A DNA stretch of 64,000 nt from Myxococcaceae bacterium JPH2 (GTDB taxonomy: Bacteria > Myxococcota > Myxococcia > Myxococcales > Myxococcaceae), in NCBI GenBank assembly GCA_016458225.1, contig JAEMGR010000006.1:62001-126000 (forward strand). The letters are read 5' to 3'. Below are positions 16,661 through 27,759 of this stretch, one piece after another. Both the position numbers and the translations under genes were made by a program. The notes beneath the pieces are model-generated. The model was not told where the DNA came from, searched no databases, and saw nothing but the letters and a program-made list of their open reading frames with translations. Position 1 is the stretch's first letter, and each line of letters opens with the position of its first letter.

Positions 16661-17575
16661 ATGCGCCTTGCACTCGTGCTGTTGCTGTCGCTCGCTGCTC
16701 CCGCGCTCGCGGCCTCGCCCGTGGAGGTTGCCCGGGGTCACCTCAAGAAGGGGCACCTCGACGAAGTCCTCTTCGCCTTGGATGGACAGAACGTGTCCGC
16801 CGAGGAGCGCGCTCCCGCCGCGGCGGTCCTCGCGGACGCGAGCCGCGCCGCGCTCGCGAAGAAGGACACCATGCTCGCGCTGCAGTTCTCGCAGATGGCG
16901 CTGCGCTACGACGCGGAGCAGCCCGCCGCGCTCGAGGTGGCCTCGCGCGCCTACTTCGCGGAGAAGCAGATCTCCTCCGCGGAGGACACCTGCGAGAAGT
17001 GGTTGCGCGTGACGAACTCCGCGCCCGCGGCGCGCCTGCTGCGCGCGGAGATCGCCAGCGGCGAGGCGGAGTGGTCTCGCGTCCTCACGCTGCTGTCGGC
17101 GGAGGTGCCCGCGTCGCTGGCCAAGCCGGCTCAGTCGAAGTGGCGCGCGCTCCGCAAGGACGCGGCCCAGCAAGAAGCGTCCAGCAAGAAGGCCCGCGGG
17201 CAACTGGAGGCAATGGACGCTCACCTCGCAGCGGCCCAGGGCGCCGCGGCGGATGCGCCGAAGTCGCAGCGCCCGGAGACCGTTGCGGCGGCCCCCAGCC
17301 CGTACCCCATCATCCTCTACGTCCGAGGAGGCTGTGAGATTTGTCGGGACGCCGCGACCTTCCTCACGACCCAGCGCGTGACCTTCGTCCAGAAGGACAT
17401 CGGCAAGGACGCCGCTGCGCGCGATGAGCTGCAGGCCAAGAAGCAGCGGGCCCACGTCACGTATGACGGAGTCCCCATCACTGACTTTGGGGGCCGCATC
17501 GTGCCTGGGTATGAGTCGCGCCTCTTCAAAGAGGAGCTGCGGCTCTACGCCGGCGACCCGGACGCCTTCCGCTGA
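16661..17575 (+). CDS. Exported protein with helical repeats and C-terminal glutaredoxin-like domain
   Basis: 304 residues. A Sec signal (residues 1-18) is followed by a TPR-like alpha-helical region (about 20-175) with Ala-rich repeats, then a linker. The C-terminal thioredoxin fold (about 205-304) starts IILYVRGGCEICRDAATFL, giving a CEIC redox pair, and has GVPITDFGGRIVPGYE with the expected cis-proline after GV. Periplasmic placement and a CxxC motif suggest thiol-disulfide exchange on exported proteins (inference). The combination of a helical scaffold with glutaredoxin is uncommon. It follows the NmrA-like gene by 12 bases. Confidence 0.75.
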   Translation: MRLALVLLLSLAAPALAASPVEVARGHLKKGHLDEVLFALDGQNVSAEERAPAAAVLADASRAALAKKDTMLALQFSQMALRYDAEQPAALEVASRAYFAEKQISSAEDTCEKWLRVTNSAPAARLLRAEIASGEAEWSRVLTLLSAEVPASLAKPAQSKWRALRKDAAQQEASSKKARGQLEAMDAHLAAAQGAAADAPKSQRPETVAAAPSPYPIILYVRGGCEICRDAATFLTTQRVTFVQKDIGKDAAARDELQAKKQRAHVTYDGVPITDFGGRIVPGYESRLFKEELRLYAGDPDAFR

Positions 17576-17701
17576 AGGCCGCCCGCCTGGGCCCCGGCGC
17601 GGCGCGCGGAGCCTCGGGTTCGTCGGTGCGCCCAGGGGGTGTGCGGTGTTTCTTCATGGAGCCCGTGCCACCGGACACCACGTCCCAGGAAAGGAGGGGC
17701 C

Positions 17702-19651
17702 ATGAGCCGAACACCGTCGGACCGCGCGAGCCCCTCCGAGCCGTTCCTGCCGGTGGCGCCCCTCCTCTGGATGGGGGAGCGCGAGCCGCCGCGCCTGCGC
17801 TGGCTGAGTCGGTCGCTCGCCCAGGTGCTCGGCCGCCGTGAGGGCGAGGCCTGGGAGCCCTCGCTGCTCGAACGCATCGTGGACCCCAGGGACCTGCCTG
17901 GGCTGCAAGACGCGTGGCGCTCGGTCGTGGACTCGCGTGCTCCGGCGACGGTGGATGCTCGCGTGACGTGCCCCGAGGGCGGCGTGCTGCGGCTCTCTAT
18001 CGCGCTCAGTCTCGTGGAAGGGGCGGACGACGCGGGACAGGTGCTGGGCACGGTGCAGGTGCTGGGGGCGGGGGACACGGCGTTGGATCCCGACCCCGCC
18101 ACGGCGCGCTGTGAGGTCGCCGAGCTTCAGCTCACGCGTGCGCGGCGCGAGCTGGAGGAACTCATCGACAGCATCGACGGCATCGTGTGGGAGGCCGATG
18201 CGAGCTTCCGCTTCACCTTCGTGAGTCAGCAGGCAGAGCGTCTGCTCGGATATCCCGCGCGCCAGTGGGTCGAGGACCCGGGCTTCTGGGTGAAGCACCT
18301 GCACCCCGATGACCGGGACTGGGCCTCGTCGTTCTGTCGTGAGTCGGCCGAGCGGTGTCTGCCGCACGAGTTCGAGTATCGGATGCTCACGGCCGATGGC
18401 CGCGTGGTGTGGCTGCGCGACCTGGTCACCGTGCTGACCGAGGCGGGCCGGCCCCATCGGCTGCGCGGCATCATGGTGGACGTCACCCAGCAGCGCGGCG
18501 CGCAGGAGCGTCTGGAGCGCACGGTGTCGCTGTTGGAGGCCACGCTCGATGCCACGACGGACGGGCTCCTCGTGGTGAACCGGGAGGGGCGACTCACGGC
18601 CTACAACCGCCGCTTCCAACGGATGTGGGGGGTGTCCGAGGAGCTGCTGAAGGGGGGGCAGGACGCGCGGATGCTGCGGACGGCGAGTGAGCAGGTGAAG
18701 GACCCCGAGCAGTTCGTCGCCCGCGTGCGCGCGCTGTACGACACGCCGGACGCGGACAGCTTCGACATCATCGAGCTGAACGACGGGCGGGTGATGGAGC
18801 GCTCCTCTCAGCCACAGCGCCATGGCGGTGTCATCACGGGGCGGGTGTGGAGCTTCCGGGATGTCACCCAGCGAGTGCGCGCGGCCCGGGAGCGCGAGCG
18901 TCTCCTGCGTGAAGCGCACGAGGCCATCCAGGTGCGCGACGACTTCCTCTCCATCGCCTCGCATGAACTCAAGACGCCGCTGACGCCATTGCGCCTGCTG
19001 CTCCAGTCCCTGCGCAACGCGCTCGTCGCCGGCCAGCCCGTGACTCCCGAGCGCGTGGACAAGGCGCTCGGGCAGGTGCGTCGGCTTGCGTCGCTCGTCA
19101 ATGACTTGCTGGACGCGTCCCTGGTGGGGGCCGGTCGGCTGGAGATGCAGCGTGGTCCCGTGCCGCTCCAGGACGTCGTGCGCGAGGTGACGTCCGACTT
19201 CCGCGACGCGAGCGAGCGCCACGTGGTGACGTACGAGGCGCCCAGCGAAGAACTCATCGTCCAGGGTGACCGAGGCCGCCTGACCCAGGTGCTGTCCAAC
19301 CTGGTGGAGAACGCCATCAAGTACAGCCCGCTGGGCGGCGCGGTGCGCATCACGCTGACTCGGGAGGGGACCGCGGCCGTGCTGTCCGTGACGGACTCGG
19401 GCATCGGGATTCCCACCGAGGAGCAGGCGCGCCTGTTCAATCGCTTCTTCCGCGCGCACAACTCGCCAGTGTCGGGCTTCGGGGGGCTGGGCCTGGGGCT
19501 CTACATCTGCCGCGACATCGTCGAGCGCCACGGCGGTCGCATCTGGGTGGAGAGCGAGCTGGGGCGCGGCTCCACCTTTCGTGTCTCGCTCCCGGTCCGC
19601 GCGCACGCCGCGGTGCGACCCTCCACGGAGTCGGGCGGCGCGCCTCCGTGA
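17702..19651 (+). CDS. PAS-domain sensor histidine kinase
   Basis: 649 residues, with no membrane segment, so probably cytosolic. At least two PAS domains are visible: about residues 155-270 (FRFTFVSQQAERLLGYPARQ with a PAC-like VWLRDLVTVL tail) and about 280-400 (TTDGLLVVNREGRLTAYNRR). A weaker one may lie in the first 130 residues. The dimerisation box SIASHELKTPLTPLR holds phospho-acceptor His421, followed by an HATPase domain with NLVENAIKYSP, DSGIGIP and GLGLGLYICRD. It starts behind the very strong AGGAAAGGAGGGG. No response regulator is adjacent, so it is an orphan kinase, as is common in myxobacteria. Confidence 0.88.
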   Translation: MSRTPSDRASPSEPFLPVAPLLWMGEREPPRLRWLSRSLAQVLGRREGEAWEPSLLERIVDPRDLPGLQDAWRSVVDSRAPATVDARVTCPEGGVLRLSIALSLVEGADDAGQVLGTVQVLGAGDTALDPDPATARCEVAELQLTRARRELEELIDSIDGIVWEADASFRFTFVSQQAERLLGYPARQWVEDPGFWVKHLHPDDRDWASSFCRESAERCLPHEFEYRMLTADGRVVWLRDLVTVLTEAGRPHRLRGIMVDVTQQRGAQERLERTVSLLEATLDATTDGLLVVNREGRLTAYNRRFQRMWGVSEELLKGGQDARMLRTASEQVKDPEQFVARVRALYDTPDADSFDIIELNDGRVMERSSQPQRHGGVITGRVWSFRDVTQRVRAARERERLLREAHEAIQVRDDFLSIASHELKTPLTPLRLLLQSLRNALVAGQPVTPERVDKALGQVRRLASLVNDLLDASLVGAGRLEMQRGPVPLQDVVREVTSDFRDASERHVVTYEAPSEELIVQGDRGRLTQVLSNLVENAIKYSPLGGAVRITLTREGTAAVLSVTDSGIGIPTEEQARLFNRFFRAHNSPVSGFGGLGLGLYICRDIVERHGGRIWVESELGRGSTFRVSLPVRAHAAVRPSTESGGAPP

Positions 19652-19670: not shown

Positions 19671-22517
19671 TCAGTGTCTCTTCGCCAGCCACTGCTCGAC
19701 CTCGGTCGTCTCCTTGTTTCGCGCGCCCGGGAAGCGCCGGTAGATGTCGAGCGTGGAGTTCGCGAGCCGCAGGGCCCGGGCCCGCTGGCTGGGCTCGCTC
19801 ACCAGGGCCTCGGCCAGCAGGAAGCGCATGTCCGCGAGCACCAGCTCGTCCTGCCCCACGGCGTCATGCTCGTAGGTTCGCAGCGCGCGCTCCAGGTAGT
19901 CGCGGGCCTGACGCGGCTCGGCCATCGTCAAGAAGTCCGAGCCCAGCATCGCCAGGTCGTAGGCCACCTCCAGCGCTTCGGGGCCCAGGGCCGCCTCGCG
20001 GATGGCGAGCGCGCGCCGGTGTGTGTCCACGGCCTCGCGATGGCGCCCGAGCCGGAGCAGGGCCTGCCCCATGCTGGAGAGGGTGGAGGCATGGTCGGGA
20101 TGCTGCGGGCCGAGCACCTTGGCCTGGATCGCCGCCGCCTTCTCGTACGTCGCCACGGCTTCGGCGTGGTGGCCCAGGTCTCCGAGCATGTTGCCCACGT
20201 TCTTCAGGGAGGACGCCACCTCGGCGGACTCCGCGCCGAACGCGCGCTCGAAGAGGGCCAGGGCGCGTCGTTGATCGACGAGCGCCTGCTCGGGCTTGCC
20301 GGTGTAGATCTCCTGGACGGCGATGGACTCGACGACGATGGCCACGTTCGGGTGCTCGGAGCCCATGGCCGCCGTGTAGAGGGCCTCGGCCTCGCGAAGC
20401 AGGGGGATGGCCTCGGCGTGGCGGCCCGCGCGTGCCATCATCTGACCCGCGCCGAGCAGCGCCGTGCCGGTGCGTCGATCGCCTGGCGGAAAGGCCTTTC
20501 GAGCCAGCTCGACGGCGTGCAGGGACTGGGCGAGTGACTCCGGGAGCTTGCCCTGGGCGAACAACAAACTGCCGGTGTTCGCGGCGAGCATGGCCTCGAG
20601 CTGCGCATCGCCCCCCAGTCGTTGGATCGCGGCGGCGGCGTGTTGAGGCAGTTGATTGCTGGGGTCCGCGTCCTTGGCGTCCAGGAAGCTCGTCAATCGC
20701 ACCAGCTGGACCCAGCCCTCGGCGGCTTGCCGATCCAACCGCGCTGCCTCCGCGACCTGGATGGCCCGATGCAAGGTCTGCACGGCGTCTCGGTCCTGCG
20801 TGGCCCGGCCCTGGGCCTCGGCCACCCCCAGCAGGGCTTCGGCCTCGAGCGGGGGATAACCCAGTCCATCGATGTGCGGCAGCACCGCGTTGGCGAGCTC
20901 CAGGGCGGGCATCGGCTGGCCTGCTTCGAAGCGCGCGCGCATGCGGCCCAGGTCGCGACGCAGTTCCTCCATCTTCCGCTGGGACTCGGCATCCGTGGGC
21001 GGGGGCCGAGGCGAGGTGAGCGATTGCAGATCCGCGCAGCGCGCCACGTCCTCCAGGCCATGCACCGCGCGCACCGCGTTGCGCACGGCGGAGTCGTCCG
21101 CCGCGCTCAGCACTTCCACCAGCGCGGCCACGTCCTTCTTGCGCTGGTCCAGGCAGAGCAGGTGTCGCTCGAACATGCCCTCGGTCTGGCGCCCCTGCAC
21201 GCGCGTGGCCTCGCACGCCTGCCGGTGCGCGCCTCTCCACCTCGTGGCATAGGCGTCGAGCGCTCGCTCCACCTCGCTCCACGCCGCGCCGCCGATGGGC
21301 AGCGGGCTGTGCGTCAGCGCGGTCTTCACGGCCAGGTGCTGCGGCGCATCCCAGGTCCCCGCGAAGGCCACCTCGGCGCCACCACACGGGTCCCTCGGCG
21401 GGAGGAGGTGTCGCACCGCGCCCACCGCGACCAGCGGCGTCGCCACCGCGAGCGCCACCGCCAGCTTGCGCCAGTGTCGCCGGGGCGTCTGCTCCAGTGC
21501 CTGGATGAGCGCGCACATCGACGAATGGCGCGCGCTGGGCTCGGGCGACAGCCCCTTCATGACGGCGCGATGGAGCCATCCCGGGATGCTTGGCTCTCGG
21601 GACAGGGGGCGTGGATTGCGCGCCGTCGCGGGCCCGGGCGCGACGCAGGGGCGCTTGCCATACAGCGCCTCGTAGAGCGCGACGCAGAAGCTGAACTGGT
21701 CGCTCCGCGCGTCAGGAGACTCGCCGCGCGCCTGCTCCGGCGACATGTAGCCGGGCGTCCCAAGCAACGTGCCTGTCTGGGTGATGGCCTCACCCTGCGC
21801 GGTGGGAGAGGGGAGACCTGGGCTCTGCGCCACGGCCTCTTCCGCGCTGGTGACGAGCCGCGCCAGCCCGAAGTCGGTGATGCGCACCCGCCCATATGGC
21901 CCGATGAGGACGTTGTCGGGCTTGAAGTCGCGATGCACGAGCCCCGCCTCGTGCGCCGCGGAGAGGCCGCGTCCGGCCTGGATGAACAGCTCGAGCGCCT
22001 CGCGCCAGGGAAGGAGGCCTTGGCGCATGCGCGCGCCCAGCGTGGTGCCTTCGACCAGGTCCATGGCCAGGAAGACCATGTCGTCGATGCGGCCCACGTC
22101 GTGGATGGCGATGACGTTGGGATGGTCGATGCGCGCGGTGGCCTGGGCCTCACGCAGCAGTCGCGCCTGGGCCTCCGCGCGCCGCTCGGGGGCGTGGACC
22201 TCCACCCGGATGAGCTTGAGCGCCACACGGCGGTTCAGCTCGGGGTCCCTCGCGGCATACACGACCCCCATGCCGCCCGCCCCAATGCGCTCGAGCACCA
22301 CGTAGCGCCCGAGGGTCGCTCCCGCGCAGAAGAACCTGGACGCGGTCACGCCATCGGAGGACGGCGACGAGTGTCCATCCTCCGAGGCCACGCCCTCGGC
22401 GACGAGCGTGCGGCACTGGGCGCATGCGTCCAGGTGCGCCCGCAGAGGCGCCGCCTCGGTTTCGGGGAGAAGCCCGCGGACGAAAGCGAGCAGGGTCTCG
22501 GTGCTGGGACACGCCAT
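19671..22517 (-). CDS. Hanks-type Ser/Thr kinase with N-terminal zinc anti-sigma motif and TPR sensor region
   Basis: 948 residues. The first 40 contain Cys3 and the His28-x3-Cys32-x2-Cys35 array of zf-HC2/ZAS anti-sigma domains. A complete kinase domain follows (about 60-330): GAGGMGVVYAARD, an ALKLI lysine, HRDFKPDN (His195, Asp197) and TDFGLAR (Asp215). A single membrane helix lies at about 350-372. The rest, presumably periplasmic, contains helical and TPR-like repeats with GxxxxA patterns. It is divergent from a sigma-factor gene with only 23 bases between the start codons. By family and context it may sense a periplasmic cue and release or phosphorylate that sigma factor; this is inference. 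Confidence 0.88.
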   Translation of the reverse strand: MACPSTETLLAFVRGLLPETEAAPLRAHLDACAQCRTLVAEGVASEDGHSSPSSDGVTASRFFCAGATLGRYVVLERIGAGGMGVVYAARDPELNRRVALKLIRVEVHAPERRAEAQARLLREAQATARIDHPNVIAIHDVGRIDDMVFLAMDLVEGTTLGARMRQGLLPWREALELFIQAGRGLSAAHEAGLVHRDFKPDNVLIGPYGRVRITDFGLARLVTSAEEAVAQSPGLPSPTAQGEAITQTGTLLGTPGYMSPEQARGESPDARSDQFSFCVALYEALYGKRPCVAPGPATARNPRPLSREPSIPGWLHRAVMKGLSPEPSARHSSMCALIQALEQTPRRHWRKLAVALAVATPLVAVGAVRHLLPPRDPCGGAEVAFAGTWDAPQHLAVKTALTHSPLPIGGAAWSEVERALDAYATRWRGAHRQACEATRVQGRQTEGMFERHLLCLDQRKKDVAALVEVLSAADDSAVRNAVRAVHGLEDVARCADLQSLTSPRPPPTDAESQRKMEELRRDLGRMRARFEAGQPMPALELANAVLPHIDGLGYPPLEAEALLGVAEAQGRATQDRDAVQTLHRAIQVAEAARLDRQAAEGWVQLVRLTSFLDAKDADPSNQLPQHAAAAIQRLGGDAQLEAMLAANTGSLLFAQGKLPESLAQSLHAVELARKAFPPGDRRTGTALLGAGQMMARAGRHAEAIPLLREAEALYTAAMGSEHPNVAIVVESIAVQEIYTGKPEQALVDQRRALALFERAFGAESAEVASSLKNVGNMLGDLGHHAEAVATYEKAAAIQAKVLGPQHPDHASTLSSMGQALLRLGRHREAVDTHRRALAIREAALGPEALEVAYDLAMLGSDFLTMAEPRQARDYLERALRTYEHDAVGQDELVLADMRFLLAEALVSEPSQRARALRLANSTLDIYRRFPGARNKETTEVEQWLAKRH

Positions 22518-22540
22518 ACCGCCAGTGTAGGCTCGTCGAG

Positions 22541-23248
22541 ATGGCGAAGGCACCCGAGACCGGGGACCACCTCGACGACTTGCGGCTCGCGAAGGCCTGC
22601 GCCCAAGGCGACGCCGTCGCGCTCGCCGAGTTCGAGGCGCGCTTCGTCCCGCAGGTGCGCTCGGCCCTGTCGCGGCGAGGCGTGGCACCCGCCCACGTCG
22701 ACGAGGTCGTCCAGCGCTTGCGCTCGCACGTGCTCGTGAAGGACGGCGAGGGGCCGCCGCGCATCGCCGAGTACGGAGGCCGAGGTCCCTTGTCCGCGTG
22801 GCTCCGGATGACGGCGCTGCGCCTCGCCTGGAGCCTCGCGCATGAGCCCCGCGCGGTCGCATTGCCGGACGACTCGCGGCTGCAAGCCCTGGCCACGGCG
22901 GCGGAGGACGTGGAGCTGGGGTACCTCAAGGACCGCTACGGCGCGGACTTCAACGAGGCGTTTCGCGCGTCCCTGGCGGACCTGGAGCCGCGCTCCCGCA
23001 CGCTGTTGCGCATGCAGGTGGTGGAGGGGCTGACGACCCAGCAGATTGCCCGCCTCTATGGCGTGGATCGCTCCTCGGTGAAGCGCTGGCTGGCGAGCGC
23101 TCGCGAGTGGTTGCTCCTCCAGACGCGACAGCGCTTCGCCGCGCGGGTGGGCACGGAGGTCGCGGAGCTGGGCAGCCTGCTCGAGAAGCTCCAGAGCCAG
23201 CTCGATGTGAGCATCCGGCTCCTCATGCCCGGACCCGAGCCCCGCTAG
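22541..23248 (+). CDS. Sigma-70 family factor, Myxococcales-type (Sig-70_gmx1-like)
   Basis: 235 residues. A region-2-like N-terminal part (about 15-110) has PLSAWLRMTALRLAWSLAHE, and a clear region 4 (about 140-200) carries the helix-turn-helix LTTQQIARLYGVDRSSVKRW. Region 3 is missing, as in ECF-like factors, and the C-terminus extends about 35 residues. The pattern and the kinase neighbour match the myxobacterial family TIGR03001. The ATG at 22541 was chosen because the longer frame overlaps the divergent kinase gene. The promoter of each gene must lie inside the other's coding region, which makes mutual regulation plausible. Confidence 0.82.
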   Translation: MAKAPETGDHLDDLRLAKACAQGDAVALAEFEARFVPQVRSALSRRGVAPAHVDEVVQRLRSHVLVKDGEGPPRIAEYGGRGPLSAWLRMTALRLAWSLAHEPRAVALPDDSRLQALATAAEDVELGYLKDRYGADFNEAFRASLADLEPRSRTLLRMQVVEGLTTQQIARLYGVDRSSVKRWLASAREWLLLQTRQRFAARVGTEVAELGSLLEKLQSQLDVSIRLLMPGPEPR

Positions 23249-25688: not shown

Positions 25689-27560
25689 TTACTTCACGGC
25701 GCTCACGAACCTCGCGGCAATGGGCGCGGCGACACGCCCACCCACGCCTCCGCCCTCGACCAAGACCGCGAAGCCGAGGCCCGCGTGGAAGCCCACGAAC
25801 CAGGCATGGGTGGGCAGCGGCGGCGTGGTGCCGAACTCCGCGGTGCCTGTCTTGCCGCCCGCGCCAGGCACGCTCGCCAATGCGCGGCCCGTACCCTCGG
25901 TGACGACCGCGCGCATCATCGCGGCGAGCGGCCCCGAGGTGCCGGGCGCGAGTGACTCGCGAGGCCCCGGCTCCTGCTCCTTCACGAGATAGGGCGCGCG
26001 CCACTGGCCGGCTGCCACGGCCCCTCCCACCGATGCCAGATGCAGCGGCGTGGCCAGCACCCGGCCTTGTCCGATGGCGGCGGACGCCAGCTCGGCCACG
26101 TCGCGCGGCGGCGGGAAGGACGCGCCCGGCGTGGGGAGCCCCGCGCGGTACGGCACGTCGAAGCCGAAGCGGTGCGCCGCCGCGGCCAGTCGCTCCGGGC
26201 CCAGTTGCTCCGCCAGCGCCACGTACGCCGTGTTGCACGAGTGGGCAAAAGCCAGACGCAAGGACGTGGTGCCCAGGAACTCATCCTCGAAGTTGCGGAA
26301 GGTCCTGCCTCCGACCGTCACGGTGGGGGGGCAGGCCACCGGGGTGCGGGGCTCCAGCCCTTCGGCGAGCAGCGCCTCGGTGGTAACAATCTTGAACGTG
26401 GAGCCAGGCGGATAGCGGCCCGTGAGGGCACGGTGCGCGGGCTGCGCGAGCGGGCGGCTGACGATCGCCACGATGGCGCCCGTGGCGCTGTCCACCGCGA
26501 CGAGCGCGGCGGGCTCCACCACCCCGTCGAGGGCGGCCTCGGCGGCGGCCTGCACCTCGGGGCGCAGGGTGGTGCGCAGGGGCGCCCCCGGGGTTCCCTC
26601 GAAGTGGAAGAGGACGCGCGTGTCGCCCGCCGCGCGTGTCACCGTCACGTCTCCGGAGGGGCTGCCGGCCAGCTGCCGCTCATAGGCCCGCTCCAGTCCA
26701 GACAGCCCGACCACGTCACCCGGTTGATACAACGGGCCCAACTGCGCGAGTGCCTCGGCGGTGACTTCACCCACGCGACCCAGGGTGTGCGCCGCGAAGC
26801 CCTCCGCGGGCGTGAGCCGCGCGCTCTTGCGACGAAAGAAGATGCCCGGCACCGGCGCCAGCGCGGGCCGAGCCACCTGATAGCGCTCGGGCCGCACGTC
26901 GACGATGGGCACGAACCCGTCGGTCACGGTGGCGCCCGCGGGCCCCAGGGCTTGTTCCACTCGCTCCGGGGAAATGCCGAGCTGGGTCTCCAGCGCGGAG
27001 GTCACCGCCGTGCGTGAGCGCACGCGCGCGGGATTCACCCCGATGGTGATGACGTCGCCCAGGTGCGTCAGCGTCCGGCCCGCGTCATCGAGCAGGTCGG
27101 CGCGCGCCCCCCAGGCCCGCGTGCGGGAGAACCGCTCGCCGCCTTGCACGTCCGGATGGAGGACCGCGGGTGTCCAGCGCACCCCCCAGCGACCCTCGCG
27201 GCGCGAGAGCCTCAAGGCCCCGTCCACCGGCCATTCGCCCAGGCCTCGCAGCCAGTGGTACGCGCGGAAATGCGCGACGGCGCTGTCTCCTCCCTGCCAC
27301 GTCACCTCGCCCAACTCGAAGCGCGAGGAGACGATGCGCAGCCCATCGCGGAAGCGCGCGTGCTGGGCCTCGAAGTCCGCGGGAGGCGCGAGCACCGCAC
27401 CGCGAAGCCGCGACAGGTCTCCGGTGCTCCAGACCTGGAGATAGGCCTGGGCCGCGTCGGCGGGACCGGGGGGCGGCGGTGGTGGGCGGACCGTGGCGCA
27501 AGCTCCCAGCGCCAGGGCCGCGATGACTCCGAAGATGAACTCACAGGTGCGTCGTGACAC
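25689..27560 (-). CDS. Lipidated class B penicillin-binding protein with MecA_N-like domain
   Basis: 623 residues. The GTG at 27560 yields a lipoprotein signal ending ALGAC followed by a proline run and linker. An NTF2/MecA_N-like domain (about 35-150) contains AQAYLQVWSTGDLSRLRGAV, then a PBP dimerisation-type region precedes the transpeptidase. All three active-site motifs are intact: STFK (Ser387), SCN in AFAHSCNTAY, and KTGTAE (Lys570). It should cross-link peptidoglycan in the periplasm. Most class B PBPs are anchored by a transmembrane helix, so lipid anchoring is unusual. Reading continues upstream to 27686 but without a better signal. The start choice is moderately certain. Confidence 0.85.
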   Translation of the reverse strand: MSRRTCEFIFGVIAALALGACATVRPPPPPPGPADAAQAYLQVWSTGDLSRLRGAVLAPPADFEAQHARFRDGLRIVSSRFELGEVTWQGGDSAVAHFRAYHWLRGLGEWPVDGALRLSRREGRWGVRWTPAVLHPDVQGGERFSRTRAWGARADLLDDAGRTLTHLGDVITIGVNPARVRSRTAVTSALETQLGISPERVEQALGPAGATVTDGFVPIVDVRPERYQVARPALAPVPGIFFRRKSARLTPAEGFAAHTLGRVGEVTAEALAQLGPLYQPGDVVGLSGLERAYERQLAGSPSGDVTVTRAAGDTRVLFHFEGTPGAPLRTTLRPEVQAAAEAALDGVVEPAALVAVDSATGAIVAIVSRPLAQPAHRALTGRYPPGSTFKIVTTEALLAEGLEPRTPVACPPTVTVGGRTFRNFEDEFLGTTSLRLAFAHSCNTAYVALAEQLGPERLAAAAHRFGFDVPYRAGLPTPGASFPPPRDVAELASAAIGQGRVLATPLHLASVGGAVAAGQWRAPYLVKEQEPGPRESLAPGTSGPLAAMMRAVVTEGTGRALASVPGAGGKTGTAEFGTTPPLPTHAWFVGFHAGLGFAVLVEGGGVGGRVAAPIAARFVSAVK

Positions 27561-27670
27561 GCGGCGCACTCTGCGGGGCCCGGCGCTCCGCGTCACGCGC
27601 GAACCTCGTCCCCGGCGACATTCCCGCACCGCTTCCTCGGGCTGAGAGGCCTTTGTCAATTTCGTGAAGC

Positions 27671-27680
27671 ATTCGCGAAT
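27671..27680. promoter_or_regulatory. AT-rich divergent promoter region with 10-bp palindrome
   Basis: ATTCGCGAAT is a perfect palindrome in an unusually AT-rich stretch (about 27650-27710) between the PBP gene and the papain-like peptidase gene. A TTGTCA at about 27653 could serve as a -35 element for the plus-strand operon. No consensus -10 is clear. Confidence 0.3.
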
Positions 27681-27759
27681 TACCAATTATCCACATTTAA
27701 TTCCTGGCATGATGCGGCGGGCGCAGCGTCTTGCCCTGCGCCCTTGAAAGGGTCATTCC

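What the first reader, a model, noticed from the sequence alone, without database searches (positions are those of the whole stretch)
19671..23248. Hanks kinase with a built-in zinc anti-sigma motif, divergent from a sigma factor with 23 bp between starts
The kinase begins with Cys3 and His28-x3-Cys32-x2-Cys35, the layout of ZAS anti-sigma domains. It has an intact kinase domain, one membrane helix and a large periplasmic TPR part. The adjacent gene is a Myxococcales-type sigma factor. This suggests one protein that is sensor, kinase and anti-sigma at once, with control by binding, by phosphorylation or by both.
Basis: partly seen in the sequence, partly recalled or inferred. Interest (0 to 1): 0.65.

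Follow-up and report, generated by a model that had tools for sequence, protein, structure and literature searches.

The report
Membrane kinase carrying an anti-sigma domain
In this myxobacterium, and across its phylum, a membrane protein kinase carries at its cytoplasmic tip the small zinc domain that other bacteria use to hold a sigma factor (a gene-switch protein) inactive, and it is almost always encoded beside one particular family of sigma factors, so one protein probably senses a signal, restrains the switch and releases it.

Summary
Kinase 19671-22517(-) begins with C3-x24-H28-x3-C32-x2-C35 and passes Pfam's zf-HC2 cut-off. It has an intact Hanks kinase domain, one membrane helix and a TPR part. 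Sigma 22541-23248(+) is a TIGR03001 (gmx1) member.

In a survey of 141 gmx1 loci of the same family, 129 have a neighbouring kinase with the same motif and spacing. No neighbouring kinase with a readable N-terminus lacks it. The first ligand is Cys in 124 and His in 5, a swap that preserves zinc binding. All 23 closest homologues keep motif and gene pair.

In this genome about 85 kinases exist; only the three next to the three gmx1 sigmas carry zf-HC2. The modelled domain matches only anti-sigma structures (RslA, ChrR, RsiW, DdvA). Its divergence tracks the sigma factor better than the kinase domain does.

Best reading: a membrane-anchored ZAS anti-sigma factor fused to its own kinase. Binding is well supported by inference. 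Release by phosphorylation is inferred. The sigma factor keeps its acidic 2.2 pair, so EcfP-type activation at that site is unlikely. No helix 4 is predicted. Nothing was tested biochemically.

The parts
19671..22517 (-). Hanks Ser/Thr kinase with N-terminal ZAS-like domain, 948 aa
   Evidence: ORF and domain matches
22380..22517 (-). Residues 1-46: three-helix zf-HC2/ZAS domain with ligands C3, H28, C32, C35 (ligand span 22413-22511)
   Evidence: zf-HC2 25.6 bits; H28/C32/C35 invariant, C3 at least 90%; AF2 pLDDT 92.5; fold and profile match only anti-sigma structures
22311..22379 (-). Residues 47-69: variable, mostly disordered linker rich in Ser/Thr, candidate autophosphorylation stretch (inference)
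   Evidence: pLDDT below 50 at 49-59; linker lengths vary, no conserved Ser/Thr position
21480..22310 (-). Residues 70-346: PknA/PknB-like kinase domain, catalytic residues intact
   Evidence: Pfam, alignment, fold match to PknA/PknB
21402..21458 (-). Residues 354-372: predicted membrane helix
   Evidence: hydropathy
19674..21401 (-). Residues 373-948: predicted periplasmic part with TPR repeats; four Cys at 378, 435, 455, 494
   Evidence: Pfam TPR_12/TPR_10 matches, Cys positions; topology inferred
22518..22540 (.). 23-bp spacer between divergent start codons with a GCCTACA element shared with the closest homologues
   Evidence: no sigma70-type promoter found
22541..23248 (+). TIGR03001 (gmx1) ECF-type sigma factor, 235 aa
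   Evidence: 223.5 bits vs cut-off 154.6
22700..22705 (+). D54-E55: acidic pair of region 2.2, retained across the family (D/E 0.89 and 1.00)
23126..23227 (+). Conserved C-terminal extension (residues 196-229) with near-invariant Ser212
   Evidence: also kept in gmx1 sigmas without a kinase neighbour

Best explanation
The kinase is a membrane-anchored anti-sigma factor. Its N-terminal zinc three-helix domain binds the neighbouring gmx1 sigma factor, most likely its region 4, and holds it at the membrane away from RNA polymerase. The periplasmic TPR part receives an envelope or extracellular signal and switches on the kinase domain. The kinase then phosphorylates its own anti-sigma domain or linker, and possibly the bound sigma, so that the complex opens and the sigma is released. 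This would be a single-chain version of the M. tuberculosis arrangement in which PknB phosphorylates the separate ZAS factor RshA and weakens its hold on SigH. Shown here by computation: the domain, its ligand conservation, its near-exclusive company with gmx1 sigmas, its anti-sigma fold and its co-divergence with sigma. Inferred: zinc binding, sigma binding, signal sensing, and phosphorylation-driven release.
For: Company: in this genome 20 zf-HC2 domains pass the cut-off; 19 lie within about 1 kb of a sigma gene or in a kinase beside one; 3 are in kinases, and those are the kinases next to the only 3 gmx1 sigmas, out of about 85 kinases (chance about 1e-5). In G007 all 7 kinases with an over-cut-off zf-HC2 lie within 4 kb of one of its 10 gmx1 genes. 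Survey: 129 of 141 gmx1 loci have a ZAS kinase, in three gene orders (kinase first, sigma first, divergent), so the pair survives rearrangement. Other Myxococcota families show the same. Closest homologues: 23 of 23 intact. Ligands: C/H-x24-H-x3-C-x2-C in 129 of 129, first ligand C in 124 and H in 5. Fold: the profile hits only anti-sigma chains among 177,635 PDB sequences (RslA 1.7e-7; DdvA, ChrR and RsiW weaker); the AF2 model of 45 residues matches RslA (rmsd 1.7 over 44), ChrR (1.0 over 45) and RsiW (1.9 over 45). Co-divergence: 38 ZAS columns correlate with sigma distances at r 0.84; the whole kinase domain gives 0.75; no 38-column kinase window tested exceeds 0.77; the same order holds in 42 non-redundant loci. 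Catalysis also matters: active-site residues are intact in 128 of 129 kinases. Precedent: PknB phosphorylates RshA and disturbs its SigH binding (PMC4601284).
Against: No helix 4 is predicted; in known class I domains helix 4 contacts sigma region 2 (PMC7406223), and here residues 49-59 are disordered. Eleven of 141 gmx1 sigmas have no kinase within 4 kb, so the family can work without one beside it. Two kinases near gmx1 sigmas in distant lineages lack the motif (L231, L248). No conserved phosphosite was found in the domain or linker. The co-divergence signal is partly phylogenetic. No complex could be modelled and no biochemistry exists.
Confidence: 0.58

Rival explanations
1. The kinase is an activator. 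The zinc domain is only a docking arm that brings the sigma to the kinase, and the sigma works only after it is phosphorylated, as EcfP by PknT or EcfK by PknS.
For: ECF/kinase gene pairs are known to work this way in group ECF43 (PMC8999054; PMC13147305), and PknS has the same kinase-membrane helix-TPR order with an 83-residue N-terminal segment. Active-site residues are intact in 128 of 129 kinases. Phosphorylation outside region 2.2 remains possible, as T106 in the EcfK linker.
Against: ECF43 sigmas lack the acidic DAED motif; gmx1 sigmas keep an acidic pair there (D/E 0.89 and 1.00). The most conserved Ser outside the HTH (S212) is kept equally in sigmas without a kinase neighbour, so it is not an obvious target. 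The docking domain has the fold of an inhibitor.
Confidence: 0.25
2. A redox switch: the zinc site itself senses oxidants and releases sigma, as in RsrA and RslA, and the kinase domain serves a separate pathway.
For: The Hx3CxxC zinc site resembles that of redox-responsive RslA and RsrA (PMC2877774).
Against: A sensor in the cytoplasmic tip would leave the kinase domain and the large C-terminal part without a role, yet an active-looking kinase is kept in 128 of 129 loci. Cys-to-His swaps at ligand 1 (5 loci) remove a thiol that RsrA uses.
Confidence: 0.1
3. The zinc domain is a generic module, for instance for dimerisation or kinase regulation, and does not touch the sigma factor.
For: Pfam calls zf-HC2 only a 'putative zinc-finger'; no interaction data exist.
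Against: In this genome only gmx1-adjacent kinases have it, and sequence, fold and co-divergence all point to sigma.
Confidence: 0.06

Closest known systems
M. tuberculosis PknB / RshA / SigH (kinase phosphorylates a separate ZAS anti-sigma; PMC4601284, PMC8999054)
   Same: Hanks kinase of the PknB type, zinc anti-sigma domain, ECF-type sigma, phosphorylation proposed to weaken the complex
   Different: There kinase and anti-sigma are separate proteins; here they are one chain, nearly always encoded beside the sigma
RslA (M. tuberculosis, PDB 3hug) and ChrR (PDB 2q1z)
   Same: Three-helix zinc core, Hx3CxxC; RslA is also membrane-associated
   Different: Both have a fourth helix; the domain is followed by a membrane or cupin part, not a kinase
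DdvA of Myxococcus xanthus (PDB 8rlz; DdvS/DdvA, PMC4374960)
   Same: Myxobacterial membrane anti-sigma with an N-terminal domain of this type
   Different: Not described as a kinase; a related long chain in the PDB is named a CHAT-domain protein; its partner is the ECF sigma DdvS
PknT/EcfP and PknS/EcfK (ECF43 kinase/sigma pairs; PMC8999054, PMC13147305)
   Same: Membrane Hanks kinase (PknS with TPRs) encoded beside an ECF sigma
   Different: Those sigmas lack or have a changed DAED motif and are activated by phosphorylation; no zinc anti-sigma domain is described in the held text

Membership tests
Zinc-containing class I anti-sigma domain (ZAS/ASDI) | Hx3Cx2C plus an upstream ligand about 25 residues before His | tested here: met
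   C3-x24-H28-x3-C32-x2-C35; 129 of 129 relatives
Zinc-containing class I anti-sigma domain (ZAS/ASDI) | Three-helix zinc core of the ChrR/RslA type | tested here: met
   AF2 pLDDT 92.5; ChrR rmsd 1.0 over 45, RslA 1.7 over 44
Zinc-containing class I anti-sigma domain (ZAS/ASDI) | Fourth helix contacting sigma region 2 | tested here: inconclusive
   Residues 49-59 disordered in the monomer model; it could fold on binding, complex not modelled
Zinc-containing class I anti-sigma domain (ZAS/ASDI) | Encoded beside its sigma factor | tested here: met
   23 bp away; 129 of 141 gmx1 loci, 23 of 23 closest homologues
Zinc-containing class I anti-sigma domain (ZAS/ASDI) | Binds zinc and inhibits the sigma factor | not testable with these tools
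   needs protein work
ECF43-type kinase-activated sigma (EcfP/PknT) | Sigma lacks the acidic DAED motif in region 2.2, Ser/Thr in its place | tested here: not met
   D54-E55; D/E 0.89 and 1.00 in 141 sigmas
ECF43-type kinase-activated sigma (EcfP/PknT) | Adjacent Hanks kinase | tested here: met
TIGR03001 Sig-70_gmx1 sigma family | Score over curated cut-off | tested here: met
   223.5 vs 154.6 bits
Hanks-type Ser/Thr kinase (PknB-like) | Intact catalytic residues and PknB-type fold | tested here: met

The most novel reading that the evidence does not exclude
A phylum-wide class of one-chain 'kinase/anti-sigma' receptors in which the kinase's key substrate is its own anti-sigma domain, in cis, so that a transmembrane signal frees a sigma factor without proteolysis, without a separate anti-sigma factor and without activating phosphorylation of sigma.
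Probability: 0.4. Interest if true: 0.78.

Novelty: new variant of a known kind. Interest (0 to 1): 0.62.

Why it matters
A review of ECF control (PMC8999054) lists kinase-linked ECF groups outside ECF43 as unexplained because their sigmas keep the acidic region 2.2 and would not need phosphorylation there. A built-in anti-sigma domain would explain one such case at once and make it testable with a 45-residue fragment. It would also give a function to a sizeable set of myxobacterial receptor kinases (3 in this genome, about ten in G007) and a way to predict which sigma each one controls.

Tried and rejected
First genome-contig scan with the window sigma alone: no relatives; one diverse sigma alignment had no conserved stretch; a closer alignment worked. 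Literature searches for a zinc anti-sigma domain fused to a kinase found none in the held library; the main ECF classification paper is not held, so prior mention there cannot be excluded. Considered Ser212 of sigma as the kinase target: rejected as specific evidence because 11 of 11 gmx1 sigmas without a kinase neighbour keep it too. Looked for a sigma-kinase gene fusion: none in the 141 loci. Looked for a conserved phosphosite in the linker: none. Searched a sigma70-type promoter between the genes: none. L075, L192 and L207 first looked like kinases without the motif; their N-termini are cut off by contig ends. L125 was a nearest-kinase error and does carry the motif. A complex of sigma and the zinc domain could not be modelled with the monomer tool.

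Full report
What is there. The kinase gene runs 19671-22517 on the minus strand (948 aa) and the sigma gene 22541-23248 on the plus strand (235 aa), with 23 bp between their start codons. The kinase matches zf-HC2 at residues 9-36 (25.6 bits, cut-off 22.2), Pkinase at 72-292, and TPR repeats over its C-terminal part. The hydropathy maximum is at 354-372. The sigma matches TIGR03001, 'Myxococcales family 1', with 223.5 bits against a cut-off of 154.6.

It is a family rule. TIGR03001 sigmas occur over the cut-off in 103 of 179 genomes of the window's phylum, and in none of 14 control genomes. I fetched 140 gmx1 loci of the same family plus the window and looked for a kinase by sequence alone, without asking for the zinc motif. 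129 of 141 have a Hanks kinase whose N-terminus carries C/H-x24-H-x3-C-x2-C. One more kinase is cut by a contig end. Eleven have no kinase within 4 kb. No neighbouring kinase with a readable N-terminus lacks the motif. The gene orders are about evenly kinase-first, sigma-first and divergent, so adjacency has survived several rearrangements. Loci from other families of the phylum show the same pairing. So does a set of 80 named loci, where 64 show it, two kinases do not (L231, L248), two are cut, and the rest have no kinase nearby. That set includes Myxococcus, Corallococcus, Archangium, Sorangium, Nannocystis and Polyangium, and overlaps in part with the first.

Close homologues. The 23 closest homologues of this sigma (48-67% identical, 17 genomes) all keep a divergent kinase with the full array. 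The spacer stays short: 23-26 bp in the closest group. Only the two-gene pair, not its surroundings, is shared with genome G048, and the congener G017 has no comparably close match, so the pair seems to be gained or lost as a unit.

Specificity within a genome. In the window's genome 20 zf-HC2 domains pass the cut-off. All but one belong to genes beside a sigma gene, three of them kinases; the exception looks ChrR-like by eye. Of about 85 kinases only three have the domain, and these are the neighbours of the only three gmx1 sigmas, a match expected by chance about once in 100,000. In the single-contig genome G007, all seven kinases with an over-cut-off domain lie within 4 kb of one of its ten gmx1 genes.

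Zinc ligands. Across 129 kinases the spacing is invariant. The first ligand is Cys in 124 and His in 5 (L051, L067, L071, L076, L088), an exchange that keeps metal binding possible. In a 44-sequence alignment H28, C32 and C35 are as invariant as the catalytic residues.

Fold. A profile of 31 such domains, run against 177,635 PDB sequences, matched six at E up to 1: RslA at 1.7e-7, then DdvA (two chains), ChrR (two) and RsiW, all anti-sigma proteins. The 45-residue AF2 model (pLDDT 92.5, three helices) matches RslA, ChrR, RsiW and DdvA structures, ChrR with rmsd 1.0 over 45 residues; the other two Foldseek hits have probability under 0.1. Foldseek E-values and Z-scores are weak in themselves because the domain is so small; the point is that nothing else competes. 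A fourth helix is not predicted. In RslA that helix covers the beta-prime-binding face of sigma (PMC2877774), and in class I domains generally helix 1 faces sigma region 4 and helix 4 faces region 2 (PMC7406223). The domain here therefore most likely grips region 4 alone, or its linker folds on binding (inference).

Co-divergence. Pairwise distances of the 38-residue zinc domain correlate with those of sigma at r 0.84, against 0.75 for the 271-residue kinase domain, and no 38-column kinase window tested exceeds 0.77. Partial correlations are 0.65 (zinc domain given kinase) and 0.36 (kinase given zinc domain); the bootstrap interval of the difference is 0.22 to 0.37. In 42 non-redundant loci the order holds (0.65 against 0.59, best kinase window 0.56). 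Shared ancestry contributes to all of these numbers; the comparison between domains of the same protein is the informative part.

Phosphorylation. Active-site residues are intact in 128 of 129 kinases, so catalysis is under selection. The exception, L123, has Met for the ATP-binding Lys yet keeps the zinc motif. The sigma keeps two acidic residues at region 2.2, so the EcfP mechanism, where a phosphate supplies the missing charge (PMC8999054), does not apply there. Phosphorylation elsewhere on sigma, as at T106 of EcfK (PMC13147305), is not excluded. The nearest precedent for release is PknB phosphorylating RshA (PMC4601284).

Conclusion. The most likely reading is a one-chain receptor: periplasmic TPR sensor, membrane helix, kinase and zinc anti-sigma tip. 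I put binding of the neighbouring sigma by the tip at about 0.85, and the whole chain with phosphorylation-driven release at 0.58. It is a new variant that combines two known kinds, the ECF/kinase pair and the ZAS anti-sigma factor. I found no held paper describing it, but the main ECF classification paper is not in the library.

Noticed in passing
window 23126-23227: gmx1 sigmas share a conserved C-terminal extension after region 4 with near-invariant Ser212 (98%) and frequent Ser219 and Ser224; it is kept also in sigmas without a kinase neighbour, so it is probably structural.
   Followed up: partly
L031, L039, L041, L048, L053, L066, L069, L070, L083, L087, L099: Eleven gmx1 sigmas have no kinase and no convincing zinc anti-sigma gene adjacent to them; how they are controlled is unknown.
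   Followed up: partly
window 22518-22540; L264-L284: The short divergent spacer holds a conserved GCCTACA (closest group) or GGCTATC-like (next group) element shortly before the kinase start codon, possibly a shared promoter element.
   Followed up: partly
L179 (G000:C3:19366-26000): Another ECF sigma and Hanks kinase stand divergently in this genome, but this kinase has no zinc domain and the sigma is not gmx1 and keeps DAED; a natural contrast.
   Followed up: partly
   Followed up: no
L123: A gmx1-adjacent kinase with Met in place of the ATP-binding Lys, a possible pseudokinase that keeps the zinc motif; a natural test of whether the domain works without catalysis.
   Followed up: no
window 19674-21401, kinase residues 378, 435, 455, 494: Four Cys lie in the predicted periplasmic part before the TPRs, possible disulfides of an unnamed sensor domain.
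   Followed up: no
window 25689-27686(-), 17639-19651(+), 16661-17575(+): Neighbours: a class B penicillin-binding protein with a MecA_N-like domain, a PAS histidine kinase, and a protein with a glutaredoxin-like domain; the flanks are not shared with the homologous pair in G048.
   Followed up: partly
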